IMG/VR virus record: IMGVR_UViG_3300042731_011014
Location: 62,001-126,000 of that record
DNA: 64,000 bases
Source: a virus
Reading direction: 5' to 3' (one strand)
The notes below the pieces were generated by a model, which was not told where the DNA came from, made no database searches, and worked only from the letters and a program-made list of their open reading frames with translations. Position numbers and translations under genes: made by a program. Positions 21,384 through 62,069 of this stretch are shown here, piece by piece (position 1 is the stretch's first letter; the number at the start of each line of letters is the position of its first letter).

Positions 21384-21724
21384 GCGGCGGAAACCCCTGA
21401 TTTCAATCAGGGGAGAAGCCGCCTAACAATTAACCACCAAATTATGCATACGAATAACATTGGGAGTTACCTCCCAATTCTCTGCTTTCGCAGGTAAAGG
21501 TCACCTCGGCAAAGTTAATGCACGGTTTTATATGCAAACAGCACTGGCTTAACCCCTTAGACCTGTTTAACCACTTGCCGTAGAGCCTGGGGCTGGTGAA
21601 GCACCCCAGGGTACCTATATATTCGTGCTTAACGTAGCTCAAGAAGTATTGCTCCTTTGCTTAGCCTGGTTAACATAAGGCCTGTAATCTCTCACAAGCC
21701 CTCGACTTCAGTCGAAGGTAGTTG
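21384..21724 (+). mobile_element. Relic resembling the RNA-coding 3' end of an IS200/IS605 (tnpB) element
   Basis: A 340-nt stretch without a convincing gene, richer in G and C than its surroundings and dense in perfect hairpins: outer GGCGG/CCGCC with inner CCCCTGAT/ATCAGGGG (21384-21423), ATTGGGAG-TTAC-CTCCCAAT, CTGC-TTTC-GCAG, CCTGGGG/CCCCAGG, and TCGACT-TC-AGTCGA (21702-21715) followed by GGTAGTTGAC. The last hairpin plus tail looks like the right end of IS200/IS605 elements, where the omega-RNA of TnpB lies; the first hairpin has a similar look. No tnpB reading frame survives. It reaches into the last codons of the gene ending at 21708. Confidence 0.45.
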
Positions 21725-22190
21725 ACGACTTAACCGGATTCGGTTTTACTAGTTTTGTTATCTCATGTATAGCAAGAGACATTGGCCCAGATAACGCTAA
21801 AATTAAGGCCTCCCACCACTCCTTTCCGGCTCCAATCGTAAGAACAATAAATAATCCACCTCCTAGAACTAAAGTTGCAATCCGAATGTAATTTTTTCCT
21901 TTTTCCTTGAACCATGTGCTTGCCATTTTTAATAAAGAAATTAATAACTTGAAAATTGCCGCGAGCAACGCCATCCACGCTACTAACTCACCTGCATGCT
22001 CCCCTGATTTTAAATCCTTTACTGTCTTCACCAATTTTCCAACATCACCAATAACACCTGAAACATCACCATCACTATTAACTGCATTATCTACAATATC
22101 AGCCGGATCCGTTGATGCATCATTGGCATATGCCATATTTAGCATAATTATTGAAAACATTAAAATTAACACAAAAATTGCTTTAATCAT
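21708..22190 (-). CDS. Membrane protein with signal peptide, holin-like layout
   Basis: 160 aa: N-terminal signal sequence (FVLILMFSIIMLNMAYA, likely cleaved before NDAST), an acidic linker, then two or three membrane segments (AWMALLAAIFKLLISLLKM; IATLVLGGGLFIVLTIGAG; possibly ALILALSGPMSLAI). Multiple membrane passes and small size fit a holin or related lysis protein, but no family motif proves it. The last six codons (SSTTFD and stop) are encoded within the hairpin end of the adjacent relic, so the original C-terminus may have been replaced. Confidence 0.65.
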   Translation of the reverse strand: MIKAIFVLILMFSIIMLNMAYANDASTDPADIVDNAVNSDGDVSGVIGDVGKLVKTVKDLKSGEHAGELVAWMALLAAIFKLLISLLKMASTWFKEKGKNYIRIATLVLGGGLFIVLTIGAGKEWWEALILALSGPMSLAIHEITKLVKPNPVKSSTTFD

Positions 22191-31382: not shown

Positions 31383-34253
31383 TTATAACAATTTAACTCT
31401 AAACCAACTAAACGAAGCAGCAAAACCGCTAGAACCTTCATCAAATAAATAAATTCCAATTCGAGAAGGTGTAAAAACCGAATCAAACTCTCCGGACTTA
31501 TCCCAAACAGTGCCATCCGGAGAACATAAAAATTCATATAATTGAGTTGAATGCGTATATTTAATTTTTAAAAATACTAAATTATCATACCATACACGTT
31601 CAGCTTGATCTCCAGTAAAAGAACCATTTATAACCCGATCATGTTTTAAAACTTGCCCACCACCATCTTTTGCTCTCATCCAACCAACCCAATTACAAGA
31701 TCCACCACTATCTACACCATTATCCATAAATATTCCCACCATATGATAATTACTCCAAACAGTAGCTCTTAACTTAATATAGACCTCAAAATCAACCGAA
31801 TCAGGACTCATCTTTGCTAAGGTATGATGTTTTGTTATATCCCACCCACTACCATTACCATTAATATTCAACCATAATCTACCATCATCAATTCCCCACG
31901 TACCATAAGTCGGATCGGGATTTCCGCGACGTATCCAACTCCAATCACTGTCTAATGCTAATTGTCCCGATCCTGTAAATTCATCATCATATGATGATGG
32001 ACTACTTGGAGGAATATCTTCTTCATGACCAGCATAAATTGCAGTTGTCTCAATTACAACATCGTCCTCATACTCAATAATAGGATCAATAAAATAATGT
32101 CCACCACTCCAATTACTCGTCGGAAAAGCATCACTAGCCGTATAAAAACTTGGCCTGGCGTCTATGTTATAGGCATCGCCAATTGACCTAGGACCCTGAG
32201 TTAAAGTCGGACTACTTGCCTGCCAATGTTTCGCCTCACCCCAATAAATCGTCGCCATAAATTCCTCACCAATATCCGATCCAGAGATCTCAAAAGGTGA
32301 ATCGAACAACACTTCGTAAAAACCTGCTGTAGTGGGAGCATCCACGCTTTTTGTTTTTAGCTGGGATTGCCCGTCTACTCGCCACAAACTCAACTTATTA
32401 GTCAGGCTTCCAGTATAAGTGCCGCCGACATAATATCTGACCCCCACGATATTGCATGCTTTATTACAACGGAACTTGTTTCCTTGGGTGAATCTTCCGC
32501 TTGTATCCACCACCGCAGCATCCACGGCACTTGAGAAAAGATAACTATCCCTCTTTGTAGTTGTCTGAGGAGTTATCTGTGCGCCCTCTAACAAAACAGC
32601 GTCGAAGCCTTCTTCATCGCCAGAAGCTTTAATCGTTACAATATTACTGGAAGGGTTATATTTGTACTGGAGCTGCTGTTCCGCAGAACTTCCAGAAAAT
32701 ACGCCAACATAATCAAGTTTTTGGCCATTGCGATAAAATAATAAATGATAACCCGAAAGGGTATCAGCAAGACCAGCTCCCCCAGGCGTTTTATTTAGAT
32801 TAAAATAAACGTTCGCATCGGGTGTTTCAGTTCCGTCGGTTGTAAAATGTTGCTCCACTAAATGAGTAGCATTTTCATAAAGATTGATATTGTTATAAAC
32901 AAGACTAAATTTCTGGAAATGTGTATCTGTTGCAGGCTGGCTTCCCCAAACAACAATGAGCAATGCTATTATATTTTTATTGTAACTAAACTCTTGATCA
33001 AACTCTCTAACAATTGTCATGTCGTCTAAGGACGGTTCATTGTCAACATCATTCGCTGAAGCCAAATAATAAATTCTATTTCCTCGCCGCATAATAGCTA
33101 ACCAAGCATAATCTTGGTCTGTTGGAATAACACTCGTATGGTGTTGTTCACCGTCATCAACAACAGAATGAATTCTATAAGTACCAGAATGATAACTTAG
33201 TTGATTCCTGCCGTAATCAGTTTTAGAACCATCTAAATAATGGACAATCCCTCCAGCATTTGAATTAGCGGAATTTACTACATTACTCACAAAAACTTTA
33301 GCAACAAAATCTAATGGTTCGATTGATAATTTTAAATTTGGTGCAGTAAACGTTGAACCATACCAGTCTAAAGTTAACCCACCGGAACTTCTTCCAATTG
33401 CAAGCTTAGTGTCGTCTTCTATAATAGTTGGATCTGGATCTGCAACGTCAACAATATCCTTAGTCCAATTATCATGGATATCCGAATTATTTAAGTTATC
33501 GTGAAAGTCTATTCCTTGGCCGACGTAACCTCGGAGACGAGTTGATACTGTTTCGTATTTGAGACTAAATTTTCTAAATTCGCATGACCATGCTCCATTA
33601 TATGTCCAACCTACATGCACTAAAGCAATTGCCGCATTACCGTACGGAACCGATACACTTTGCGTCGTTGCGTAGGTCATTAAATCAATATTTGGCTCAT
33701 CAGTATAACTACCAATAGAATAATACAAGATAAGATCGCCACCACGTCGGCGAATAGCTAACCAACAATTATCCTGTCCAATGTCAGCAACAATGGTGTT
33801 GTCACTGCTGATATTCCAAAGTAATTGCCAAGCACCGCTATTTGAACGTAAACCAAACCTCATCTTTGTATTAATATTGGAAAAATCGTAGTAAGCCAAG
33901 ACTACTTCGGTCCAATTCTGCACAGTTTTATTTGAGACATGCACCTTAACCGCGAAATCATAATGTTGGGGTAATAAATAAACTCTTGGGGCATTGACTC
34001 CCCAATCATCCGTTGAAGTATCAGACAGTTCCAACTTTTCCGAGTCCTCGGTTTTTGTACCATCACCAGCCTCAGTCCAATTAGGATGAAGCACACTATT
34101 GTTCAGAGGATCGACAAAATCTAATGTCTCCAAAAATTCAAATGTAGCTGGCCTAACAATACCATCACCACCAACCACGTCGGAAGCATTGCCTGACAGA
34201 TCATTCTTAGTTAAAAAATCAGCGTCGATTACTTGATGTGCTTTAATAGGCAT
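31383..34253 (-). CDS. Multi-lectin adhesin, 956 aa
   Basis: Three concanavalin-like beta-sandwich domains can be seen, each opening with a D-x-(F/L)...W phrase: LDFVDPLNNSVLHPNWTEAG near residue 40, IDFHDNLNNSDIHDNWTKDI near 250, and SSYDDEFTGSGQLALDSDWSW near 780. Each continues with AWLAI.RRG or similar and a FxKFSL-type strand. Between the second and third is a separate beta domain (FRCNKACNIVGVRYYVGGTYTG). Multiple lectin folds in one chain suggest avid glycan binding. No catalytic motif identified. Confidence 0.75.
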   Translation of the reverse strand: MPIKAHQVIDADFLTKNDLSGNASDVVGGDGIVRPATFEFLETLDFVDPLNNSVLHPNWTEAGDGTKTEDSEKLELSDTSTDDWGVNAPRVYLLPQHYDFAVKVHVSNKTVQNWTEVVLAYYDFSNINTKMRFGLRSNSGAWQLLWNISSDNTIVADIGQDNCWLAIRRRGGDLILYYSIGSYTDEPNIDLMTYATTQSVSVPYGNAAIALVHVGWTYNGAWSCEFRKFSLKYETVSTRLRGYVGQGIDFHDNLNNSDIHDNWTKDIVDVADPDPTIIEDDTKLAIGRSSGGLTLDWYGSTFTAPNLKLSIEPLDFVAKVFVSNVVNSANSNAGGIVHYLDGSKTDYGRNQLSYHSGTYRIHSVVDDGEQHHTSVIPTDQDYAWLAIMRRGNRIYYLASANDVDNEPSLDDMTIVREFDQEFSYNKNIIALLIVVWGSQPATDTHFQKFSLVYNNINLYENATHLVEQHFTTDGTETPDANVYFNLNKTPGGAGLADTLSGYHLLFYRNGQKLDYVGVFSGSSAEQQLQYKYNPSSNIVTIKASGDEEGFDAVLLEGAQITPQTTTKRDSYLFSSAVDAAVVDTSGRFTQGNKFRCNKACNIVGVRYYVGGTYTGSLTNKLSLWRVDGQSQLKTKSVDAPTTAGFYEVLFDSPFEISGSDIGEEFMATIYWGEAKHWQASSPTLTQGPRSIGDAYNIDARPSFYTASDAFPTSNWSGGHYFIDPIIEYEDDVVIETTAIYAGHEEDIPPSSPSSYDDEFTGSGQLALDSDWSWIRRGNPDPTYGTWGIDDGRLWLNINGNGSGWDITKHHTLAKMSPDSVDFEVYIKLRATVWSNYHMVGIFMDNGVDSGGSCNWVGWMRAKDGGGQVLKHDRVINGSFTGDQAERVWYDNLVFLKIKYTHSTQLYEFLCSPDGTVWDKSGEFDSVFTPSRIGIYLFDEGSSGFAASFSWFRVKLL

Positions 34254-40290: not shown

Positions 40291-42774
40291 TTAGTCATCC
40301 TTCGGTAACACTAATCCCCAAAAACAACCATCCTCATGTAAATCCGGATAAGTATACGAATCAACGTTTTTATCATCCATTAATCTTATTACGGATACAG
40401 CACCTCCTATTGATTCATATTTCCACGATGAAACAACAACAAAATCAGATATAAGTGTTGAAAAAGCAATCGCATGCCTGAAAACAGATTCACTACCAAC
40501 AAGGATCTCTCCGGAAGGTGGGTTATTATCCTTTCCCCCTCCACCCTGTTGCGACAACGAATAAGCTAGCCAATATTCCATATTCCCGCGATTAAGCATA
40601 TAAATACCACGGGTAGTCAATGCGAATAAAACATTACTCGCGGATGCAAGACCCTTTATTTCAACCGGCAGCTCAACCATCCTATCGATATTTTTATTTA
40701 TTGAATTCTGAGCTATTCTACCATATTGATAATCAAAAACATTCCTCCAGATTTTCCTACCTCTTGAAAACCAAAGCCATCCGCTCACATCCAGATGTAT
40801 ATTTCTGTATCCAATCTCATTATTATCATAATCACCTAGATCGTCTCCTATTACAGGATTCAATATCTGTGCCTCATTATCAATATACATAATAATTTCA
40901 GGACCAGGATCCTCGCCCATTGCAATCGTCCACATTTTTGAAACATCGGAACTATCAAAAATAGCTTCTACTGAATAAACATTATCTGAAGTAATCCTAA
41001 GAGATGGATCCACTCCAACAGAAGTATACACGCCTCCAGTATCATTTCTATTAGTTATCGTAATTCCCGAGTCTGCCTTATAGTGATTATCGCTCCTAAT
41101 TAGTGTAAATACATTTTGATCAGATGATTTAAAATCAATCGTTATTATTCCACCATTATCAGTTCCATTGTCACTTACTCCTACAACCAGCACCCCATTT
41201 AACATCTTAACCGATCTAACACTAAATTCACCTCTCCCTAGCGCCTTGTAATTTGATAGATCATCAAACATAAATCGCATCCAAACAACAAAATTAGCCG
41301 ATGTTCCATCATAATTATCCAAGTCAAAAATTACCAATTCCTTACTGGCTACCACAATTAAAACCTTGTCTGGAAAAGATGGATCAGGACTCCTATAATC
41401 ACTAGATACTTCGGTTCTCCAAGGCGCCTCAATAGGTCCGGGATCCTGGCTGCCATCAGTATATTTATAGCCAATTTTTGAATAACCGGAAAAATTATTT
41501 TCTGTAGGTCTATCCCATGGCTCATTTGTAGTGTCATAAAAAAAAGCTACATTCGGCTTAACCGAATCTAAAAAATGAGCATGACCATGAATATCACTCG
41601 TCGATCTATTCACATTTGTCTCAAGTCCCAGTATTCTTCTTTCATTGTCTTCAAAAGCAGTAATATTTTGTCTATTTTTTAGGTCATTTTGTTCAAAACA
41701 CGCCCCTCTTGTATATTGAGGGAAAGTATATTTTACTCTATCTCCAGCATTATCAATCTTATGGAAATCATACATTTTAGCTGGTTTTTTGTAAGTATTA
41801 TTATCCGATCTTGATAGATTGGAAACTTTACCAGGAACAACTACTCCAACACCAATGTTATTATCATAATAATTTTTTCTTGATCCAAACTCACCAATCT
41901 TAAAATCATCTTCGATATTCCCATCCTTGAAAATATGCTTCATGCCAACTTTTATGCCTGGATATGAAAAACCATGATATTTTTCCCTAACACCAGCACT
42001 AACCATCCCTATGCCATCCTCTAAGATAGATTTATTATCTTTTTCTAATATCTCTGTCGGATCATCTAAAATAGATTCATATGCATCTAATACATCTGAG
42101 TTGCTAAACGTTTCATTTGTTATTCTAACACCGTAAATAATCGTATTGCTGTTATTGCCAATATTAAGTCTTTGAGTATTTCCACTTGTAGCCTTCTCTG
42201 CTGCTGTGCCTGAAATGGTATCCTTCAGATCGCCATTAATGTACATTTTCATCTCATCGCCATCTGAATTAACAGTTAAGGTAAGATAAACAATCTCGTC
42301 AACAACAGCAGTTGCATTTGGAAAACTATAATAATAATCTGTTCCTGCTCCATGCTCTATATAAGTACTATGAGTAGATCCGCTTATGCGGCCAAGACTA
42401 TATAAACAATTTGTCTCAGGTGATTCACCTAGACCAATGCATTCAATCTCATTTACGGCATTTAAAACCGCCTTAGCAATACACTCAATTGTTAACGATG
42501 CATCGCCACCACCTCCAGATTCCTTTGCAACTCTTAAGGCCTCAACATCAGGAGCCTCAAGTTTTCCGGTCGGTATTCTCATACCAATAAGGCCACTGTA
42601 AAGATCATCTTCATAGACTAAGCCGGATCCAACAATAATAAGATCTCTGCCTTGACCAGTCCTATCAAGTAATGATGAACTTGAGCTATCAAATCGATAT
42701 ACACACAGTGGAGGATTTGTAACCCCAACCGGATTGTTGATACCTAAATATTCACCGATTATCTTTATAGACAT
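40291..42774 (-). CDS. Large adhesin with LamG-like domain, 827 aa
   Basis: Residues 20-240 form a LamG/concanavalin domain (PLCVYRFDSSSSSLLDRTGQ at the start; LTLTVNSDGDEMKMYINGDL and NIGNNSNTIIYGVRITNETF near the end), a fold that binds glycans. The rest, from VGVVVPGKVSNLSRSDNNTY on, corresponds to the C-terminal two thirds of the 1039-aa neighbour and shows propeller-like strand repeats ending in SWKYESIGGAVSVIRLMDD. Adjacent on the same strand (3 nt gap), so the pair probably arose by duplication with change of the N-terminal lectin. Confidence 0.7.
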   Translation of the reverse strand: MSIKIIGEYLGINNPVGVTNPPLCVYRFDSSSSSLLDRTGQGRDLIIVGSGLVYEDDLYSGLIGMRIPTGKLEAPDVEALRVAKESGGGGDASLTIECIAKAVLNAVNEIECIGLGESPETNCLYSLGRISGSTHSTYIEHGAGTDYYYSFPNATAVVDEIVYLTLTVNSDGDEMKMYINGDLKDTISGTAAEKATSGNTQRLNIGNNSNTIIYGVRITNETFSNSDVLDAYESILDDPTEILEKDNKSILEDGIGMVSAGVREKYHGFSYPGIKVGMKHIFKDGNIEDDFKIGEFGSRKNYYDNNIGVGVVVPGKVSNLSRSDNNTYKKPAKMYDFHKIDNAGDRVKYTFPQYTRGACFEQNDLKNRQNITAFEDNERRILGLETNVNRSTSDIHGHAHFLDSVKPNVAFFYDTTNEPWDRPTENNFSGYSKIGYKYTDGSQDPGPIEAPWRTEVSSDYRSPDPSFPDKVLIVVASKELVIFDLDNYDGTSANFVVWMRFMFDDLSNYKALGRGEFSVRSVKMLNGVLVVGVSDNGTDNGGIITIDFKSSDQNVFTLIRSDNHYKADSGITITNRNDTGGVYTSVGVDPSLRITSDNVYSVEAIFDSSDVSKMWTIAMGEDPGPEIIMYIDNEAQILNPVIGDDLGDYDNNEIGYRNIHLDVSGWLWFSRGRKIWRNVFDYQYGRIAQNSINKNIDRMVELPVEIKGLASASNVLFALTTRGIYMLNRGNMEYWLAYSLSQQGGGGKDNNPPSGEILVGSESVFRHAIAFSTLISDFVVVSSWKYESIGGAVSVIRLMDDKNVDSYTYPDLHEDGCFWGLVLPKDD

Positions 42775-42776
42775 TC

Positions 42777-43016
42777 TTACTCTGTTTTCTCACGTGTACC
42801 ATCTGAAAAAACCACCTCCCTGACACCTTCTTCAAATGATACAATCCTAATCGCTCTTCTTAGTTGTTTTTTATATTTTAATGAGGCCTCAACAATCTCA
42901 ACAGAAATATCATTATCATGCTCTCTAAAAAACCTTATTGCTTCTTCTCTGGTTTCAAATGGGCCATCCAGAGATATATTATTATTTTTTAATTTATGCT
43001 CAATCCAAAATGGCAT
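42777..43016 (-). CDS. Hypothetical protein, 79 aa
   Basis: A small charged protein, MPFWIEHKLKNNNISLDGPF, ETREEAIRFFREHDND, then SFEEGVREVVFSDGTREKTE. The pattern of a beta hairpin, a helix and another hairpin resembles small adaptor domains, but no family is recognised. It lies between the four-gene paralogue cluster and the LamG-like adhesin, with gaps of 9 and 2 nt. Confidence 0.6.
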   Translation of the reverse strand: MPFWIEHKLKNNNISLDGPFETREEAIRFFREHDNDISVEIVEASLKYKKQLRRAIRIVSFEEGVREVVFSDGTREKTE

Positions 43017-43025
43017 AACCTCTCC

Positions 43026-43706
43026 TTATACATTAAGTAATCTAAATTGATATTCTATAAATAATACCTGATGTTCAGTTTTTGTTATAGTAACAGGTAT
43101 TCCATTTTCATCCTTTAATCTCACCCTGCCAACCCTCTCTATAGGCGCTTGCCAGCTAGGATTCATAGATCCAGTTTGACCAGATAACCCATAAATACCA
43201 AGGCTTCTAATATTACTAGAAATACCTTGGCTTGGTAAATACATCCACGCATTCTTAAAAATTACTTCTTCTCTTGTGTTAAATGCTTCTATGGAAAAAT
43301 CATACATTTGATCTACAATAAACCTCTTTGCACCCCCGTTGACATCATCACCATTAACAGTTTCACTAGTATCATTAATATTTCTTCCCCCCTCATCTAT
43401 TAAATTTTCTGTATATGAATCAGTATCAGAATCAGTAGTTAGCAAACAAATAAATGCTAAAGTAGAATATGCATCTACTCCTTGCGTTATCCAAGTCCAG
43501 GAAAATCTAGAAGGACCAATATTAAATACTTGTTGAAGTAAAAAAGCAGCTTTTCCGTCAAAAATCCTATTGCTACAATCTAATTGAGTTTCCAATTCTA
43601 ACCCAGAAACCAATTCTTTAAGTGTTCCATTTTTTTGTGCACTAATAAAATCGCTATCTTTGAGGTCTCCGGAATTTAGCAATCTAATCTTAAAAAAACC
43701 ATTCAT
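43026..43706 (-). CDS. Tandem paralogue D (226 aa) of a four-gene virion protein family
   Basis: Starts MNGFFKIRLLNSGDLKDSDF and carries the family signatures CSNRIFDGKAAFLLQQVFNI, DTDSYTENL, YLPSQGISSNIRSLGIYG and a C-terminal VGRVRLKDENGIPVTITKTE..VLFIEYQF. The conserved ends and variable middle suggest a shared assembly interface and a divergent exposed part. It is the last of four consecutive copies in transcription order. I do not recognise the family from outside this cluster. Confidence 0.8.
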   Translation of the reverse strand: MNGFFKIRLLNSGDLKDSDFISAQKNGTLKELVSGLELETQLDCSNRIFDGKAAFLLQQVFNIGPSRFSWTWITQGVDAYSTLAFICLLTTDSDTDSYTENLIDEGGRNINDTSETVNGDDVNGGAKRFIVDQMYDFSIEAFNTREEVIFKNAWMYLPSQGISSNIRSLGIYGLSGQTGSMNPSWQAPIERVGRVRLKDENGIPVTITKTEHQVLFIEYQFRLLNV

Positions 43707-43708
43707 CT

Positions 43709-44374
43709 TTACATACTCACAATGCTAAAAACATATTCAACTAGCATTACTTGATCTATCGTCTTTTCGATAGTAACAGGAATACCTGCCCCGTCCTTGA
43801 TTCTTATTCTACCTATTCTAGCAACATAACTCCCCCAATACCCTCCAGTAGCTAAATCAGCTTGTTTAGCCCAAAAGATACCGATACTTCTTATCTCATC
43901 AGAGACACACTGCGTTGGTAAATACAGAAAATTATTTTTAAATACAATTTCATCTCGATCCTCTTCAATCCAAAGATCGTATTTATCCAACTCATCAATT
44001 ATAAATCTTTTTCCCGCGGAAGACGTATTAGCAGAATCCTGAACAATATGAATTGTTGTTTCGGCAGCACCCCACCAATTTTCTGTATAATAAGGCTCAT
44101 TATCTGTTTTCAACATACAGATAAAACCTAACGGTGCAGCGGTAACATACTCAACATCATCATAAGGACCACGCGGTAACCCAAAAAGAAGATCAAGTAA
44201 AATACCTGACGCATTATCAAAAATCCTATTTCTACCACTGAATTCATTATCAATACTCAGACTGTTTATAAGTAAATCTAATTCACCACACCTCTTTGCC
44301 TCTAAAAAATCCCTGTCATTATAGTTCTTGCAATTTAGCAATCTGATATCAAAAAAACCATTCATATTAGACAC
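43709..44374 (-). CDS. Tandem paralogue C (221 aa)
   Basis: MNGFFDIRLLNCKNYNDRDF begins three residues after the first Met; the family phrases are GRNRIFDNASGILLDLLFGL, YTENWWGAAE, YLPTQCVSDEIRSIGIFW and IGRIRIKDGAGIPVTIEKT. It overlaps the upstream copy by 8 nt. The central segment (residues 75-130) is unlike its siblings apart from a YTEN core, consistent with diversification of the exposed face. Confidence 0.8.
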   Translation of the reverse strand: MSNMNGFFDIRLLNCKNYNDRDFLEAKRCGELDLLINSLSIDNEFSGRNRIFDNASGILLDLLFGLPRGPYDDVEYVTAAPLGFICMLKTDNEPYYTENWWGAAETTIHIVQDSANTSSAGKRFIIDELDKYDLWIEEDRDEIVFKNNFLYLPTQCVSDEIRSIGIFWAKQADLATGGYWGSYVARIGRIRIKDGAGIPVTIEKTIDQVMLVEYVFSIVSM

Positions 44375-45020
44375 TTATAAGCTTAAACGTATAATCAAAA
44401 AGTAAAACTTCTTCTGCATTTTTCGTTAATTCAACATTGTTTCCATTAAGATCCTTTATTCTTACCCTGCCTACCCTTCCATTCGTCAAAACAGATCCAA
44501 GATCATTACTAGATCGCCGTCTCCAATAAATTCCAACACTTCTTATATCATCAGATATAGCTTCTGAAGGAAGGTATAAGTATCTACTTAAATAATAAAC
44601 CTCATCCCTAGTTGCATTTCTCTCAATAGAACTAGAGAATGCATCAATATAAAAAGACTTTAATGCAGTACTAGAAACTATATTACTTATTAAATTCGCC
44701 ACACCGGTCCATGACCAATCCTCAATATATGAATCAGTATTACTATCAATATCTAATAATGCCAAAAAAGTTAGCGGTGCAGCACGATCTACACCCGTTT
44801 GGTACAGATAATATGGATCCGTGCAATCTGGTAATCCAAATAACCTATCCAATATCATAGCAGCTACATTATCAAAAATCCTATTACTGCATCTTGCCTC
44901 TTGTTTTAACTCCAACTTATCAAGAATATTATTTATACTGCCATCTTTTATTGCAGATTTAAAAAAATCATCACCGGCACCATTAGAACTAAATTTTTTT
45001 ATATTAAAAAAACCATTCAT
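44367..45020 (-). CDS. Tandem paralogue B (217 aa)
   Basis: MNGFFNIKKFSSNGAGDDFF, then CSNRIFDNVAAMILDRLFGL, DSNTDSYIEDW, YLPSEAISDDIRSVGIYW and VGRVRIKDLNGNNVELTKN..VLLFDYTF. Same gene order and spacing as its siblings. No signal peptide or membrane helix. Interpretation as a tail-tip or fibre subunit is from context only. Confidence 0.8.
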   Translation of the reverse strand: MNGFFNIKKFSSNGAGDDFFKSAIKDGSINNILDKLELKQEARCSNRIFDNVAAMILDRLFGLPDCTDPYYLYQTGVDRAAPLTFLALLDIDSNTDSYIEDWSWTGVANLISNIVSSTALKSFYIDAFSSSIERNATRDEVYYLSRYLYLPSEAISDDIRSVGIYWRRRSSNDLGSVLTNGRVGRVRIKDLNGNNVELTKNAEEVLLFDYTFKLISV

Positions 45021-45028
45021 ATTTCTAC

Positions 45029-45685
45029 CTAACCGCTTGACATTGTAAATTGATATTCAATTAATAAAACATCTCTATCGCTTTTTGTCATTGTCACTAA
45101 ATTACCTTCTGCATCCTTTAATCTTATTCTGGCAACTCTCAAAACATACCAGTTCCACCCAGAATTATATAAAGTAGCACCAATAACTAAGCTATTTATA
45201 TTGCTTGATATAATTTCAGATGGCATAAATAAAACTCTACTGGTAAAAATTATTTTATCCGCATCACCATGCACCAATATCGACGATTCAACAGCGCCAT
45301 CTATTAGAAATATACTCCCATTATCATTATCAACTGATCCACTTATATCGCTAACATATTCCCTACTTCTACTATCGATACTATTATTGCTAGTCTCGGT
45401 GTATGAATCAGTATCAGTATCAATACTACTGATATTTAAAAAATCTAATGAATAGAATGTACTAAAACCTAGAGGAAAATCACTCCATAAACTCGGTGCC
45501 CCAAAGAGCTTGTTAAGCATTCTTGCAGGTATTGAATCAAACACTCTATTACATCCATTATACCTACCTTTTAAACTTAATTTTTTACATAATTCATCTA
45601 CACCATGATACTTAATGTACTCAACTACATCATAATCATTCATTCCACAAGAATCTAATAATCTAACATCAAAATATCCATTCAT
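45029..45685 (-). CDS. Tandem paralogue A (218 aa)
   Basis: First of the four copies in transcription order: MNGYFDVRLLDSCGMNDYDV, CNRVFDSIPARMLNKLFGAP, DTDTDSYTETSNNS, FMPSEIISSNINSLVIGA and VARIRLKDAEGNLVTMTKSD..VLLIEYQF. It is the most divergent sibling in the Ser/Asp-rich middle. It starts 3 nt after the end of the 783-aa gene, which may provide their attachment site. Confidence 0.8.
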   Translation of the reverse strand: MNGYFDVRLLDSCGMNDYDVVEYIKYHGVDELCKKLSLKGRYNGCNRVFDSIPARMLNKLFGAPSLWSDFPLGFSTFYSLDFLNISSIDTDTDSYTETSNNSIDSRSREYVSDISGSVDNDNGSIFLIDGAVESSILVHGDADKIIFTSRVLFMPSEIISSNINSLVIGATLYNSGWNWYVLRVARIRLKDAEGNLVTMTKSDRDVLLIEYQFTMSSG

Positions 45686-45688
45686 TAC

Positions 45689-48040
45689 TTACGCCCATCC
45701 GCCGGGAACATTACCGGTCAAGTTTATCCTATACATAATTACCAACGCCTCATCAGGTGGTTTGGTAATTACCTGAGTTATACCAACTTTAGATCCGCCC
45801 CCGGTTGGTAACCCTAATTTAGCATTTGAAGTTGACCCATTAGCAACTGTGTCTAAATCAAGATCGCTCCTATCACCTGCTACTGTCGCCCTTATCAATA
45901 AAAAACCAAAATCTGTTCTTATAGCCTCAATTCTGTACCCTCTAAAAGCCTGATTCAATGAATCCACAATATCACTCATGCTAAATGTTTGTAGCATATT
46001 TGGTATTTCAAATATTCTGTAAGTCGGAACACCATCCGTCGCCATCCTTAAAACTTCATCAGTAAACGTAACACCAGGCATTGCCTCAAAAGCCATTAAT
46101 GACGCTATTTTTACACCATGCGATGAATCATTCGCCAGCATGTTCGTTAATCTAACACCAAGACATTGAATTGCATTAAAAACAAACTCAAGTCCATATG
46201 CGCCATTATCATAAATTGTAGATGCCTGTGAAGTATGATCAGGATCAGACACATCAAACCAGCTATTATCATCACCAGGTTTTTCAGTGCCAGCCGGAAC
46301 CCCGCCTGGATTATCAGTAAGTACTTGAATCTTAAAACTATTAGGACAATACATCTTGTTTTGACCAGCAGGGAATACTATCCTGATCCCTACCAAATCT
46401 TTCGCAGCCCCCCAAACCCTACCGCACATATGAGGTCCCGAATTATCTTCACTAGCGAAATATTCACCATGAATTACTGCGCCCGGTTCATCAGGATCGT
46501 CAGCAGCATCCACTCTGCCTTCATTTTCAACACGCCCATCAAACATTTTCGACGCATTGTAAACCGTAAAAACCCCATCACCAGTTGTCATAAAATTTTC
46601 TGTAACTGTAGAATTTGGTGTCTCAAAAACTTTTACTATGTGCTTATCAATAACATCCTCAATCGTATAATCCCTATTATTATTACCATCGGACGAGTTA
46701 CTAATTCTTAACGTTTTTCTTACATGAAAATCCCTATCAAACCCGTGAGTTAATGGTAATGCAGCTACAGCATTTGAACGTTTAAATGTTATCTCTCTTG
46801 TGGTTGCATTAATCGAGTCGGATGCATCCCCGACAATGTCAGATTCAACCTGCTCCTCGGTTAGCATGGAATTGGATATATACCCATCAGATGAAACAAC
46901 AGTAACTAGGTCAGGGTATGTATATTCAATAAGATCGATACCCTGAGACTGGGCCTCATGTTTATAAATTCTATCGCATATGCCTTGGAAAGTTGGAGAT
47001 AACCCAATAATTGATCTAACACCAATTTGATTATCCACTTCACCATCACCGCAAGCTACTCCGTAAGCTAAACCAACTGATTTAATAGGAAAATTATCAA
47101 GATATTTATTATCTCCGGCTTCGGATGCAACACCTCCAGACATACCTGATACAGAAAATCCTCCGTCTGATACATTTTCAGTTATCGCTTTAACATGAAC
47201 AGTTCCGCCTATATCATGATCAAGATCCACCTGTGCTGTTCCTCCTGATGAAGCAGTTATCCTTAAGCTATTATTCTGTCCATTAATTTCTGTGATAATA
47301 GCATCTCTAACGTCATCAGCATCAGAAGCTCCAGAAATATCCACTGGCACCCTTCCGGCAGTCCAGCTCCCATCTGTATCGAATTCAAAAATAACAGGAT
47401 CATTGATACCATCATCAATTGTAAAATAATCAGCATCAGTAAGTGATCCTGGAGCAACGGTCGTTATGGAGCCAACAGCATTTGAATAAACAAGTGTAGG
47501 CTGAGCATAAAACACAAACTCGGCTTCACCATACGGATCTGTACTCCTATAAGATACAGATACAGTCCGGAATACTCCGCTCGTATCACTTATAAGAACA
47601 CTCCTTCTACCTTCACCCGGTGTCGTAATATCAGCAGATATTTTATCATCATACTGACTATCAGACTCATTAAACTCAACCTTTTCATCGCCATTTTTAC
47701 CATCAGTTGATGGACTGTCAGTTGCCACAAAAAACGCTTGAAATGGGTTTCTTTCTGGCTCATATGTTATATCGGAAGGAACAAAAGGGCCACCAGAATG
47801 ACCGGATAGGCACTCATGCATCATTCTTGAAAGTCCGCGCTTAGTAAACTTGTTTTTGAACGCCCTAGAATAAACTATCCGATCTTTTTCTTTTGGTTCA
47901 AAACTTCCGTCAGGTGTTTCCTGCATAAAATCAGAAAAATTAACCCTACCACCATCGCCTGTACCTTTTATCCCTTTTATGTTAACACCAACAAACTTAA
48001 AACAGCCGGATGTTCCAATAGTTCCTCTACCCTTTATCAT
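45689..48040 (-). CDS. Large baseplate-proximal structural protein, 783 aa
   Basis: Starts with GRGTIGTSGCFKFVGVNIKG. Residues 185-310 form a domain common in phage and bacterial adhesive proteins: DADYFTIDDGINDPVIFEFD, SGASDADDVRDAIITEING and a final GFSVSGMSGG. Later parts resemble a discoidin-like or galactose-binding fold (VRLTNMLANDSSHGV, AKDLVGIRIVFPAGQNKMY). It lies directly after tail protein I and before the four paralogues, the position of the first fibre or baseplate-rim protein. Role inferred. Confidence 0.65.
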   Translation of the reverse strand: MIKGRGTIGTSGCFKFVGVNIKGIKGTGDGGRVNFSDFMQETPDGSFEPKEKDRIVYSRAFKNKFTKRGLSRMMHECLSGHSGGPFVPSDITYEPERNPFQAFFVATDSPSTDGKNGDEKVEFNESDSQYDDKISADITTPGEGRRSVLISDTSGVFRTVSVSYRSTDPYGEAEFVFYAQPTLVYSNAVGSITTVAPGSLTDADYFTIDDGINDPVIFEFDTDGSWTAGRVPVDISGASDADDVRDAIITEINGQNNSLRITASSGGTAQVDLDHDIGGTVHVKAITENVSDGGFSVSGMSGGVASEAGDNKYLDNFPIKSVGLAYGVACGDGEVDNQIGVRSIIGLSPTFQGICDRIYKHEAQSQGIDLIEYTYPDLVTVVSSDGYISNSMLTEEQVESDIVGDASDSINATTREITFKRSNAVAALPLTHGFDRDFHVRKTLRISNSSDGNNNRDYTIEDVIDKHIVKVFETPNSTVTENFMTTGDGVFTVYNASKMFDGRVENEGRVDAADDPDEPGAVIHGEYFASEDNSGPHMCGRVWGAAKDLVGIRIVFPAGQNKMYCPNSFKIQVLTDNPGGVPAGTEKPGDDNSWFDVSDPDHTSQASTIYDNGAYGLEFVFNAIQCLGVRLTNMLANDSSHGVKIASLMAFEAMPGVTFTDEVLRMATDGVPTYRIFEIPNMLQTFSMSDIVDSLNQAFRGYRIEAIRTDFGFLLIRATVAGDRSDLDLDTVANGSTSNAKLGLPTGGGSKVGITQVITKPPDEALVIMYRINLTGNVPGGWA

Positions 48041-48982: not shown

Positions 48983-51751
48983 CTATGCAGTTAGTTCTAC
49001 TATTTGCTTAATCTCAGTATTTACACCCTTTGTAATAATCTGATTGTCTTCTATTTCAAGATCTCCATCGCTATTAGCTGATGGCGGCGTATCTGTTACT
49101 GTCGTATCGACAAACCGTGTACCGGTAATCTTAACATTAATATATTCATATTTAGTTGCACCGGCCTGCGTCACAACATTAGCCTTAATTGCCTGATTAA
49201 ATTCGTCTAGACGTAGCTTTTGCCCAAACTCCCTGTTCTTAAAAACAATATCAACCTGCTCACTTACCTCTGTTAAAATATCCGCCGGAGCGAAAAGCTC
49301 CTTCACTTTAACCTTTACCTCAATATCAACCCCAATAAGAAACCTTGCTCCATCTATAGTTGATACTGTTACGGATGCAAGTTTTTTCCCATCAATATTA
49401 TCTTTTAATGAACTTAATAATCCATTTGATGGCGCAGTATAAAAACCATCAGCGTCAACAGTAAGTACCTGTACTTGAATAATATTTGCCTTACATTCTC
49501 CACTGATTACCGTATCGAGATAATCTTCAAGATCTTGCACTGCCGTTGTTACATTTGCCGGAATCAACGCAGTATATCCTATGTATGTATCGCTAATAAC
49601 ACTGTCAGCATTAATCGTATCTGCTAGCGTGTCAATATCATCCATGTCCGTTGAAATAACAGCAGTGTCAGTATCGATTGAATCAACATCGGTCTCAGCC
49701 TGTGTAATATCAGAATTAGCTTCTGTTAAATCAGATTTAGCATTATCTATCGCAGTCGTCGCAGACTCAAGTTCATACTGAAAATTAACATAGATATTCT
49801 TACCGAATTCACCGCTAATACCTTCAGGTGCAATAACAAAATTAACTGTTAATGCTCCTGATGCATAATTAATAGTACTTCCAGTATCTATTCCAGGTCC
49901 CGAAATCGCCCCGGCCCCATCATCAAATCCATAAACAGAGTCACCATACTTTTCCACAATAAGATTGGTGCCAAACATTCGATTACCAGAATATCTAACT
50001 TTTTTATCATTCACAAACTCAAGGATTTGCCTTTTAAGCCCACCAATCCTAATTAGCTTACCAACATCACCTGATAAGAAAAACGCGGCTGTAGCCACCT
50101 CAACGAACCCAGGGGATGTTTCACAATCGCCTGTAACATCCGAGGCAGCAACAACAGGCTCAACTACAATTGAAAGAGATCTGGGTACAATATTTTGAAA
50201 AGTCAGCAATTTATAAAATGATTTTGTCGCCCCATCGCCTTGGGCCATAATCTCCTGAAAGGGAACCGAGCTAGCCGCGTCAATAGCAATATCAAGATCA
50301 CTATTTGCATCGGCAATATGGGACGTTGCATTTGCTGTATCGGTTTTAATTGTCGCTTGCTTAGTTCCAATTGAAGCCAGTATAGACTTAGCACTGGCCG
50401 TCTCAATTTTTACAGTATTAGAACTAGTTCTAATTGCGGTATTTTTTGTTGTTACTGTACTCAAAAAAACAGACAAATTAGCCGTTTGAGTATTTATATT
50501 ATTGAGTCCTCCTTGAATACCAACCTCATTCTCGACACCAAGAAGTCTAATAGCGTTAGCTCTAGCAACCGATCCATAGGTCCCACTGCTGAATTTCTCA
50601 GAAAGAATTCGAAAATCACTTAATGAAACAGCTCTATCAACAGTAGCATACCATTTTGGGGCACTTGCCTGAATCGATGATATAGACTCCTCAGGAGCGG
50701 ACCCGGACGACGCTGAAGAATTATTGCAACTTATATTGATTACAGTAAAGTTAATAGTCAAGGAATCCCTAAATGTTGTAAGGGTCCCCGCCGCAGCAAC
50801 TCCAGCAGTTCCGCTACCAGCAACATACAACACACTGATTTCCGCCCCGGTCTCTGGAATATTTCCAATTGCCCCATTTCCAAACCGAATTGTAGGAGGA
50901 GCAGCCGCATAATCAATCATGAATTGGTTTGATTGTTCGAAATTCAAAAAATCATTTTCCGCCCAACTATCACCATCTACCTTAAGAATAACAGAGTCTT
51001 TAGCAATTGTTTTATCTGAAGGAACTGAAGTTAGCTTAAAAATCTGATTCGCAGTGCCATCGGAAATAAATGATTCATTAATCGTTTCACCCTCATAAGC
51101 AGATATGTTTTGACCAGGAAGATATTGAGTTTTTGTATATGGGTAAACAGCAGAACTTTGTTCGGCAGCGGTAAAAGTAACATCCTGATTTAGTTCATAA
51201 ATTAATCCATTTGGACCATTAATTTTCGAACCCTTAGGCACTGTAATGTCAAATCCATAATTTTGATCTAAGATTAGATCAAGATCAACAGAAGCATTTA
51301 CCATCTGACTAGGCTTGTACCCAAGTAGCCTAGCAAATCTATTTACACTGCTTCTTAATCTAGCCGTTGTTAGAAAATTTTCCTCTGATTGTTTATCCAG
51401 GTACCATGACATTGTATCCAAAGCAAATGATACATATTGGACAATCATAATTGCGATCTGTGACGCATTAAAATCGTTAAAATCATCGCCAAATTGATCT
51501 TTTATAAACGCTAAAATTTCATCTTGAAATGTCCCATAGTCACGACCAGCATATTTTACCCTGGCAAGTGTCGCCCCAATCCTGACAGTATCTCTAATAG
51601 CAGCCCCATACTCAACCACCTCAAAGTCAGTAGTAACCGATGGATCTGTTCCTGTTTTTATGTAAATAGCATCATCAGTGGTATTATAATAAGGATACCA
51701 TTGGCTTTTACCAATCGGATGCGATCCTAACTCATCAAGCGCAAGAATCAT
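48983..51751 (-). CDS. Baseplate J-like protein with large insertion, 922 aa
   Basis: Wedge protein of the contractile baseplate. The N-terminal family region (residues 85-260: QIAIMIVQYVSFALDTMSWY, LLGYKPSQMVNASVDLDLIL) and the C-terminal gpJ region (LFAPADILTEVSEQVDIVFK, GQKLRLDEFNQAIKANVV) are clear. Between them lies an insertion of roughly 400 residues with two long helical/coiled-coil stretches (NINTQTANLSVFLSTVTTK..., DLTEANSDITQAETDVDSID) and an intervening beta domain. Ordinary gpJ is 300-450 aa. The phrase DRAVSLSDFRILSEKF marks the usual middle of the family. Confidence 0.85.
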   Translation of the reverse strand: MILALDELGSHPIGKSQWYPYYNTTDDAIYIKTGTDPSVTTDFEVVEYGAAIRDTVRIGATLARVKYAGRDYGTFQDEILAFIKDQFGDDFNDFNASQIAIMIVQYVSFALDTMSWYLDKQSEENFLTTARLRSSVNRFARLLGYKPSQMVNASVDLDLILDQNYGFDITVPKGSKINGPNGLIYELNQDVTFTAAEQSSAVYPYTKTQYLPGQNISAYEGETINESFISDGTANQIFKLTSVPSDKTIAKDSVILKVDGDSWAENDFLNFEQSNQFMIDYAAAPPTIRFGNGAIGNIPETGAEISVLYVAGSGTAGVAAAGTLTTFRDSLTINFTVINISCNNSSASSGSAPEESISSIQASAPKWYATVDRAVSLSDFRILSEKFSSGTYGSVARANAIRLLGVENEVGIQGGLNNINTQTANLSVFLSTVTTKNTAIRTSSNTVKIETASAKSILASIGTKQATIKTDTANATSHIADANSDLDIAIDAASSVPFQEIMAQGDGATKSFYKLLTFQNIVPRSLSIVVEPVVAASDVTGDCETSPGFVEVATAAFFLSGDVGKLIRIGGLKRQILEFVNDKKVRYSGNRMFGTNLIVEKYGDSVYGFDDGAGAISGPGIDTGSTINYASGALTVNFVIAPEGISGEFGKNIYVNFQYELESATTAIDNAKSDLTEANSDITQAETDVDSIDTDTAVISTDMDDIDTLADTINADSVISDTYIGYTALIPANVTTAVQDLEDYLDTVISGECKANIIQVQVLTVDADGFYTAPSNGLLSSLKDNIDGKKLASVTVSTIDGARFLIGVDIEVKVKVKELFAPADILTEVSEQVDIVFKNREFGQKLRLDEFNQAIKANVVTQAGATKYEYINVKITGTRFVDTTVTDTPPSANSDGDLEIEDNQIITKGVNTEIKQIVELTA

Positions 51752-52648: not shown

Positions 52649-53326
52649 TCACCTTACTTCTATTATATCACTTTTTAATTCATCAATCTCAGTAAACTCG
52701 TTAAAATATTTGGAATGGAGCCTGCTATGACACTCCGCACAACACCAAACAACATCAAGAGGCTTGCTGTAATCTTTATGGTGAGCTTCTATATTCTTAT
52801 TAGATCCACAAATACCGCACAGCCCCCTTATTAATTTTCCACTCCTAACTGCTGCGCTAACAGCACCTCTGGCCTTTAGTTTTTCTTTATTTTTTAAATC
52901 TAATCTAATTTTTCCGCTCTTAAGTATTAGTTTTTCTTTAATTTCTGGTCTTTGCCTATATTTTTTATACATTTCTTTAATTTCTGGTCTTTGCCTATAT
53001 CTTCTACCGTATTCTCTATTCTTTTTTTTATTTTCCGGCTTCTGCTTAATTATAGCTCGCCTTCCACTAATCTTATACTTCTCTCTATATTCCATCTCTT
53101 TTTGCTTAACATCAAACCTTTGTCGATATTCCTTACGTCTTTCTTTAAACTCTGGAATCTGTTCACGCTCTCTTCTTTTTTGTTTTGTTTCTGGTCTTTG
53201 GCTATATTTTTTTTGGCAATCCCTACAATGGCTTCGCCTTCCATCTTTTGAAGAACTTTTTCTATTAAAACAGTTTAGTGATTTTATTTCTCCACACCTA
53301 CTGCATTTCTTCTTGCCTAAGTTCAT
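52649..53326 (-). CDS. HNH endonuclease with zinc fingers and internal repeats
   Basis: 225 aa. N-terminal zinc finger KKCSRCGEIKSLNCFNRKSS with HCRDCQKKY; middle is a Lys/Arg-rich region containing repeats YRQRPEIKE; C-terminus is an HNH core with CGICGSNKNIEAHHKDYSKP and CCAECHSRLH. It sits between the spike gene and the 168-aa gene, joined by TAATG to the spike stop. Such free-standing HNH enzymes in tail operons are typical homing endonucleases that spread by cutting related phages lacking them. Confidence 0.85.
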   Translation of the reverse strand: MNLGKKKCSRCGEIKSLNCFNRKSSSKDGRRSHCRDCQKKYSQRPETKQKRREREQIPEFKERRKEYRQRFDVKQKEMEYREKYKISGRRAIIKQKPENKKKNREYGRRYRQRPEIKEMYKKYRQRPEIKEKLILKSGKIRLDLKNKEKLKARGAVSAAVRSGKLIRGLCGICGSNKNIEAHHKDYSKPLDVVWCCAECHSRLHSKYFNEFTEIDELKSDIIEVR

Positions 53327-61301: not shown

Positions 61302-62069
61302 CTAATTTGCCACAGTTAATCTTCTCTCTAGCTTTTCAGCAAAATCCATTCTATCTTTAATAAAATCCTTAAATGCTAATATAAACAAGTCTTTATCTGC
61401 TAACGTATAAATATCAGTATCATAACCATGTTTCTTTTTATATAATTTTTTCAAGATTTTACTGAAAATATTACTATATTTCTTTATCTCACTATCAAGT
61501 AAACCGTTATCCTTAAGAAAAGAATCGACGCTAATCACCAATCTATCATCCCAGACTAAACCTTTTTCATCGCTATTCTCATACGTTCCAATACTTGCAC
61601 TAGTTAATGCAGATAGCTCATGCTCGGCTACACGCCTAATATTGTCAGGTAAATTTCTTTTTGATAAAACATTCATATATTTAATTACAAGATTATGCCT
61701 CTTAATATCTTCAATATTGTTTGTTTCAAAGAAAAGTTTCCTAAGAACTTTAGATGCCTCTTTCTGATAGGCCTCAAGTTTTAATCTGACATGACTTGCT
61801 ACCTTATTAGCGTTAATTGTTGCTAGCCACATGGGAAGGGAATCTAGGTCAATCATAAAAATTCCTTGTTTTCGACCACTTGCATCGTGTGAGGTAATGA
61901 TAACTACACATGCCCATTCCTTTTCTTGCAACTTTTTCATCTGAGATTTTGAATCAATCCCCAATGCTTCACACACCCTACGGACACTAATCCAAAGGGT
62001 TTCATTGTCTTTAATCACTTCCAAATTATCGCCCTGGAAGTTAAACTTCGTTAATTCTTTACCTGTCAT
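61302..62069 (-). CDS. Antirepressor-like protein (P22_AR_N domain)
   Basis: 255 aa. Residues 8-125 match phage antirepressor N-terminal domains: FNFQGDNLEVIKDNETLWIS, VRRVCEALGIDSKSQMKKLQ, then FMIDLDSLPMWLATINANKV. In P22-like phages such proteins block a repressor; relatives occur in many temperate and virulent phages. The C-terminal half is helical and unassigned. Start ATG 62069 follows GAGAGG. It is the first gene after the repeat-rich control region, ahead of the tape measure (14 nt gap). Confidence 0.8.
   Translation of the reverse strand: MTGKELTKFNFQGDNLEVIKDNETLWISVRRVCEALGIDSKSQMKKLQEKEWACVVIITSHDASGRKQGIFMIDLDSLPMWLATINANKVASHVRLKLEAYQKEASKVLRKLFFETNNIEDIKRHNLVIKYMNVLSKRNLPDNIRRVAEHELSALTSASIGTYENSDEKGLVWDDRLVISVDSFLKDNGLLDSEIKKYSNIFSKILKKLYKKKHGYDTDIYTLADKDLFILAFKDFIKDRMDFAEKLERRLTVAN

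What the first reader, a model, noticed from the sequence alone, without database searches (positions are those of the whole stretch)
43026..45685. Four consecutive paralogues of an unrecognised 220-aa virion protein
Four genes in a row share start (MNGFF), CSNRIFD..A.LL..LFG, DTDSYTE, YLPS..IS..IRS.GI and the C-terminal VGR(V/I)R(I/L)KD..G, but differ in the central part. Fixed ends with variable middle fits hetero-oligomers or alternative receptor-binding subunits. I do not know a described family with this pattern.
Basis: partly seen in the sequence, partly recalled or inferred. Interest (0 to 1): 0.65.

Follow-up and report, generated by a model that had tools for sequence, protein, structure and literature searches.

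The report
Fourfold tandem phage tail-fibre-domain proteins
A large uncultured phage with a contractile tail carries four neighbouring, diverged copies of a small protein built like the front domain of known phage tail-fibre proteins; related phages have one or two copies at the same spot, so the block looks like a stepwise duplication of a tail-attachment part.

Summary
Four tightly packed minus-strand genes (43026-45685; 218, 217, 218 and 226 aa) are true paralogues (31-40% identity, z 38-65). They lie in the tail-fibre section of a 178-kb virus with a contractile tail. The "fixed ends, variable middle" pattern is real but not special to the paralogues: single-copy relatives in other phages show it too, and segment trees show no homogenisation of the ends.

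The family is not wholly unrecognised. Profile-profile comparison, reciprocal HMMs and a good AlphaFold model (pLDDT 82.5) all lead to the N-terminal domain of phiKMV/Prado-type tail-fibre proteins (phrog_4176), here standing alone without the C-terminal half. No structure of this domain was found, and "tail fiber" there is annotation only.

Relatives at the same locus carry one copy (L003, L011; L010 at a contig edge), two (L028) or four (L002). The window's and L002's four genes form 1:1 orthologous pairs in the same order, so each copy was kept apart before these phages split. L028's two copies come from a separate duplication.

Best reading: non-interchangeable small subunits of one baseplate/tail-fibre assembly, not a receptor switch. 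Virion location and stoichiometry are untested. New variant of a known kind; moderate interest.

The parts
45029..45685 (-). Paralogue 1 (218 aa), P0001
   Evidence: ORF; 1:1 orthologue of L002 8001-8660 (UFBoot 96); 37% identical
44367..45020 (-). Paralogue 2 (217 aa), P0002
   Evidence: ORF; orthologue of L002 8812-9483 (UFBoot 93-95); 43% identical
43709..44365 (-). Paralogue 3 (218 aa from ATG 44365; GTG 44374 possible), P0003
   Evidence: ORF; orthologue of L002 9483-10001, which lacks the first ~45 residues; UFBoot 83; 52% identical; AlphaFold model pLDDT 82.5, pTM 0.83
43026..43706 (-). Paralogue 4 (226 aa), P0004
   Evidence: ORF; orthologue of L002 10004-10690 (UFBoot 96-97); matched by an HMM of phiKMV/Prado-type fibre proteins, E=4.2e-6 among 499 ORFs
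42777..43016 (-). 79-aa ORF directly downstream; ~80-aa ORFs that look similar by eye follow the family in L011 and L028
   Evidence: L011 and L028 ORFs (resemblance by eye only)
45689..48040 (-). 783-aa upstream neighbour, conserved flank of the locus in all relatives where the upstream side is visible; its end (ITK..EALVIMYRI) looks like the paralogues' C end but homology is not supported
40291..42774 (-). 827-aa downstream neighbour with a marginal LamG-like stretch, conserved flank
   Evidence: Pfam Laminin_G_3 E=4.2e-5, below its curated cut-off; 53% to L002, homologue in L003
48055..48540 (-). Tail_P2_I-type tail protein (context)
   Evidence: Pfam PF09684 E=2.4e-11
48983..51751 (-). Baseplate wedge (J/gp6-type) protein, 922 aa (context)
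   Evidence: phrog_219 E=1.6e-28

Best explanation
The four genes encode stand-alone versions of the ~160-residue N-terminal domain of phiKMV/Prado-type (phrog_4176) tail-fibre proteins, with a helical insertion near the start and no C-terminal half. Shown: tandem duplication at a fixed place in the tail operon (1, 2 or 4 copies in relatives), and four distinct lineages kept since before the window's phage and L002 split. Inferred: they are virion proteins at the baseplate or fibre base. Their common core (first strands and the last RVRIKD..GNPVTITK....LLVEYTF strands) does the shared job of packing into the tail structure. The diverged loops make different contacts in each copy, with neighbouring subunits, with the 783-aa and 827-aa neighbours, or with the cell surface. 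The four would thus fill non-equivalent positions of one tail assembly rather than act as interchangeable receptor binders.
For: Tail context: contractile sheath, gpV-type spike, LysM/wedge, gp6/J-type and Tail_P2_I proteins on the upstream side, marginal LamG-like and DUF4082 long proteins downstream. Family link: phrog_4176 is the only PHROG hit by more than one member, 5 of 13, best E=5.7e-4; hhalign probability 95.8-95.9 over 70-73 columns against reversed or 50 column-shuffled controls at or below 0.3; forced global alignment 97.6, colinear end to end; reciprocal HMM hits. Fold: 21 viral matches at E<=1e-3, among them Pseudomonas phage ZC08 A0A1L2C9G8 (320 aa, E=2.4e-5), equal in length to ZC08_005, which tblastn finds independently as a relative of the Prado-type fibre at E=7e-15. 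Copy series: four in G000 and G001, two in G006, one in G002 and G004, none elsewhere in those records. Orthologous pairs 1-1, 2-2 and 4-4 at UFBoot 93-97 under three models, 3-3 at 83 in the 11-sequence tree. Paralogues are 37-52% identical between the two phages against 48-64% for neighbours.
Against: The sequence link rests mainly on the C-terminal 70 columns; the N half alone only just exceeds 100 shuffles (18.4 against a maximum of 17.7). TM-scores are modest (about 0.4-0.5 on the query) and nothing matches in the PDB. 'Tail fiber' for phrog_4176 is annotation by similarity; in Stenotrophomonas phage StenM_174 the apparently equivalent gp45 was modelled as a globular 'undefined structural protein' (PMC10820202; equivalence by gene position). 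Non-equivalent positions and virion location are inference. In L002 copy 3 has lost its first ~45 residues.
Confidence: 0.57

Rival explanations
1. They are the receptor-contact subunits themselves: four alternative or parallel small adhesins whose variable loops bind different host glycans, widening host range.
For: The locus lies in the fibre section; the four evolve faster than most flanking tail proteins between the two four-copy phages (37-52% against 48-64%); the most variable parts are predicted loops; neighbours carry LamG-like and DUF4082 stretches that may bind carbohydrate.
Against: The matching part of known relatives is the N-terminal domain, usually the attachment side of a fibre protein. 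All four are kept in the same order and as 1:1 orthologues, unlike swapping receptor modules. No invertible or near-identical DNA repeats. The single-copy relatives show the same variability profile.
Confidence: 0.2
2. They form one hetero-oligomer (for instance a heterotrimer or a ring with four kinds of subunit), a fixed-stoichiometry replacement of the homo-oligomer made by the single-copy relatives.
For: Tight gene spacing suggests coordinated expression; the shared core is conserved while loops diverge; separate expansions in two lineages fit symmetry breaking by duplication.
Against: No oligomer could be modelled here; four kinds do not fit three- or six-fold tail symmetry simply; copy numbers of 2 and 4 both occur. 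Not exclusive with the best explanation; it is its stricter form.
Confidence: 0.15
3. Fold and position are incidental: they are assembly factors (for example fibre chaperones), not virion parts.
For: No solved relative; phage fibre genes are often followed by small assembly proteins (general knowledge); copy 3 of L002 tolerates loss of its N end.
Against: phrog_4176 relatives are ~310-aa proteins annotated as fibre or structural proteins; a chaperone would not obviously be needed in four diverged copies (inference).
Confidence: 0.08

Closest known systems
phrog_4176 tail fiber protein, N-terminal domain (phiKMV/phikF77, Prado, Pokken, ZC08 type)
   Same: Colinear profile match over the domain, strongest in R.RIKD..GNPVTIT.....L.VEYTF; predicted fold matches the ZC08 member; placed in a cluster of consecutive tail-fibre genes
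   Different: Known members are ~310-320 aa with a second C-terminal domain; these are ~220 aa and single-domain, have a helical insertion near the start, and occur in contractile-tailed phages
Consecutive fibre genes with the same domain in Shewanella phage FishSpeaker (L015) and Pseudoalteromonas phage vB_Pun_Y3 (L020)
   Same: Two adjacent genes both match the fibre profile, so tandem paralogues of this domain occur elsewhere
   Different: Two copies only, full-length with the C-terminal domain
StenM_174 gp43-gp46 / Ponderosa tail-fibre gene cluster (PMC10820202)
   Same: The phrog_4176-type gene is third of four consecutive tail genes (Ponderosa_046); the authors modelled gp45 as a globular domain without known fibre similarity
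   Different: Its four genes are different proteins, not four copies of one
One- and two-copy relatives in uncultured phages L003, L010, L011, L028
   Same: Same family, same place between the large upstream and downstream neighbours
   Different: One copy (L003, L011; L010 at contig edge) or two (L028) instead of four; L003 has no ~80-aa ORF after it

Membership tests
phrog_4176 (tail fiber protein) | Significant profile similarity | tested here: met
   L003 E=5.7e-4, L010 2.8e-3, L011 8.7e-3; window copy 4 only 0.052; profile-profile 95.9% probability
phrog_4176 (tail fiber protein) | Full two-domain length of ~310 aa | tested here: not met
   All 13 members are 173-229 aa and align to profile positions up to ~165-178 of 309. 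So not filed as members, only as relatives of the N-terminal domain
phrog_4176 (tail fiber protein) | Predicted fold shared with a known member | tested here: met
   Foldseek hit to ZC08 320-aa protein, E=2.4e-5, TMq 0.49, equal in length to ZC08_005
phrog_4176 (tail fiber protein) | Presence in the virion as a fibre | not testable with these tools
   Needs proteomics or cryo-EM; only gene context is available
Alternative receptor-binding (switching) modules | Invertible or recombining DNA with near-identical ends | tested here: not met
   Only diverged direct repeats (60-92% over short stretches) among the four genes, no inverted repeat pair around them; segment trees show no homogenised ends
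Hetero-oligomeric tail subunits | Distinct subunits co-assembling with fixed stoichiometry | not testable with these tools
   Only indirect: 1:1 orthology, tight spacing
Any Pfam or PDB family | Significant hit | tested here: not met

The most novel reading that the evidence does not exclude
A homo-oligomeric tail ring or fibre base in single-copy relatives was turned, independently in two lineages (two copies in L028; four in the window and L002 lineage), into an obligate hetero-oligomer by tandem duplication: a phage case of stepwise complexity gain in which each paralogue became indispensable at its own position.
Probability: 0.2. Interest if true: 0.65.

Novelty: new variant of a known kind. 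Interest (0 to 1): 0.4.

Why it matters
It ties an unannotated protein block of large uncultured phages to a widespread tail-fibre domain for which no solved structure was found. It also gives a copy-number series (1, 2, 4) at one fixed locus in which the duplicates stayed distinct. That makes it possible to test whether tail machines gain complexity by duplicating a subunit and fixing each copy at its own position. The same predicted fold also turns up in a haloarchaeal tailed virus and in archaeal filamentous viruses, which hints at a broadly shared domain.

Tried and rejected
Direct Pfam, PHROG and PDB searches with the four proteins gave only sub-threshold hits. A first AlphaFold run with four sequences was poor (pLDDT 56); 13 sequences gave 82.5. 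The PDB fold search had no match at E<=0.001. The idea that the 783-aa upstream neighbour is a paralogue with inserts (its last strand looks similar) was tested by hhalign and not supported (probability below 1%). Concerted evolution of the ends was tested by segment trees: N, C and joined ends do not group by phage; the middle alone is unresolved. Phase variation was rejected for lack of inverted or near-identical repeats. The cultured-phage collection gave no direct hit of the 220-aa proteins beyond weak C-end matches to Pseudomonas phage tail fibres and chance-level hits.

Full report
1. Observation. The window is bases 62001-126000 of a 177,890-base virus record. Four minus-strand ORFs fill 43026-45685 with gaps of 8, 1 and 2 nt. 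They are paralogues beyond doubt: local scores 263-366 against at most 61 in shuffles, 31-40% identity, and a 95-nt 3' block at 62-71% DNA identity in all four. A profile search of the record finds exactly these four.

2. Surroundings. The tail operon runs on the minus strand. Upstream in transcription are a capsid gene, a tail sheath (phrog_23, E=8.8e-60) and a tape-measure-like protein, then LysM/wedge, gpV-type spike, a small gp25-size protein, gp6/J-type and Tail_P2_I proteins and a 783-aa protein. The four paralogues come next, followed by a 79-aa ORF and long proteins with marginal LamG-like and with DUF4082 stretches. So this is a contractile-tailed phage, and the block sits where fibre genes usually lie (inference from order).

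3. Relatives. IMG/VR gave L002 (four copies, same order, 88.6 kb), L028 (two copies, 105.9 kb), and L003, L010 and L011 (one copy; L010's copy starts 445 bases from the contig end, so an upstream copy cannot be excluded). Large neighbours of similar length flank the block wherever they are visible; homology was measured for L002 and L003 and for the upstream protein of L011 and L028. Trees pair window copy 1 with L002 copy 1, 2 with 2 and 4 with 4 at UFBoot 93-97 under three models, and 3 with 3 at 83 in the 11-sequence tree; in the 13-sequence trees the two copies 3 stand side by side at the base of the unrooted drawing. The two L028 copies pair with each other (96-97), a separate duplication. 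The paralogues are 37-52% identical between the two four-copy phages; neighbours are 48-64%. L002 copy 3 lacks the first ~45 residues, with no open upstream extension, yet is the best conserved of the four pairs.

4. Fixed ends, variable middle. Segment identities between orthologues are 50, 44, 31, 43, 18 and 56% from N to C. The three single-copy relatives show the same shape (66, 46, 48, 68, 15, 82%), so the pattern belongs to the fold, not to diversification among paralogues. In the AlphaFold model of copy 3 (pLDDT 82.5, pTM 0.83) the conserved ends hold the strands 2-11, 37-47, 180-188 and 205-216, and the variable parts are mostly loops, several with lower confidence. Trees of N, C and joined ends do not group by phage, so the ends are not kept alike by gene conversion.

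5. What the family is. No significant Pfam or PDB hit. Five of 13 members hit one PHROG, phrog_4176 "tail fiber protein", best E=5.7e-4, at the same model positions. A profile of 12-14 such fibre proteins (Pseudomonas, Stenotrophomonas, Xanthomonas, Shewanella and other phages) matches the family at 95.8-95.9% probability over 70-73 columns, with reversed and shuffled controls at or below 0.3%. A forced global alignment is colinear at 97.6%. HMMs of each group find the other among 499 ORFs. The N half alone is only marginal. Independently, Foldseek finds 21 viral models at E<=1e-3, one being the 320-aa protein of Pseudomonas phage ZC08; the ZC08 gene of exactly that length is itself a Prado-type fibre relative by tblastn (E=7e-15; the UniProt-to-gene match is by phage and length). 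The family is thus the N-terminal fibre domain standing alone.

6. How it probably works. Because the matching half is the N-terminal domain, which in fibre proteins is usually the attachment side (general knowledge), and the C-terminal half is missing, an adaptor or structural role at the fibre base is preferred over direct receptor recognition. Which end of phrog_4176 proteins attaches to the virion is not established. "Tail fiber" is annotation: Ponderosa_046 was named by similarity to a phiKMV fibre, and in StenM_174 gp45, apparently the gene in that place, was left as an undefined structural protein (PMC10820202). Retention of four distinct orthologues in fixed order argues that each copy has its own job; fast divergence in loops suggests copy-specific contacts. 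Hetero-oligomer versus separate parts is open.

7. Verdict. A real and tidy case of tandem expansion (1, 2, 4 copies) of a widespread tail-fibre domain for which no solved structure was found. New variant of a known kind. Interest 0.4.

Noticed in passing
window 21494-21726 (-): A full-length HEARO RNA (RF02033, 140.5 bits, E=3.4e-29) with no IscB/IsrB-like gene recognised next to it (adjacent ORFs gave no such family): possibly a guide-type RNA without its protein, in a phage tail operon.
   Followed up: partly
L002 9483-10001: Copy 3 in the other four-copy phage lacks its first ~45 residues although it is the best conserved orthologue (52%), which suggests the N-terminal strand-helix-helix-strand unit can be lost.
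   Followed up: partly
window 43709-44365 (model of its product): The predicted fold also matches proteins of archaeal filamentous viruses (Betalipothrixvirus uzonense B2CRN3, E=1.5e-6; SIFV gp53-like, 1.5e-3) and of Halogranum tailed virus 1 (1.3e-7).
   Followed up: no
L002 10680-11597: An ORF that reads by eye like a DNA adenine methylase is inserted between copy 4 and the LamG-like gene, absent at that place in the window.
   Followed up: no
window 61302-62069 (-) and L002 4999-5340 (+): Antirepressor-type gene (phrog_524, E=5.4e-26) next to the tape-measure gene in the window; an ORF that looks similar by eye sits just before the 783-aa homologue in L002.
   Followed up: no
window 52649-53326 (-): Endonuclease-like gene (phrog_2340, E=2.2e-32) inside the baseplate gene run, possibly a homing endonuclease.
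   Followed up: no
window 31383-34253 (-): 956-aa tail-module protein with a DUF4082 domain (E=2.5e-10).
   Followed up: no
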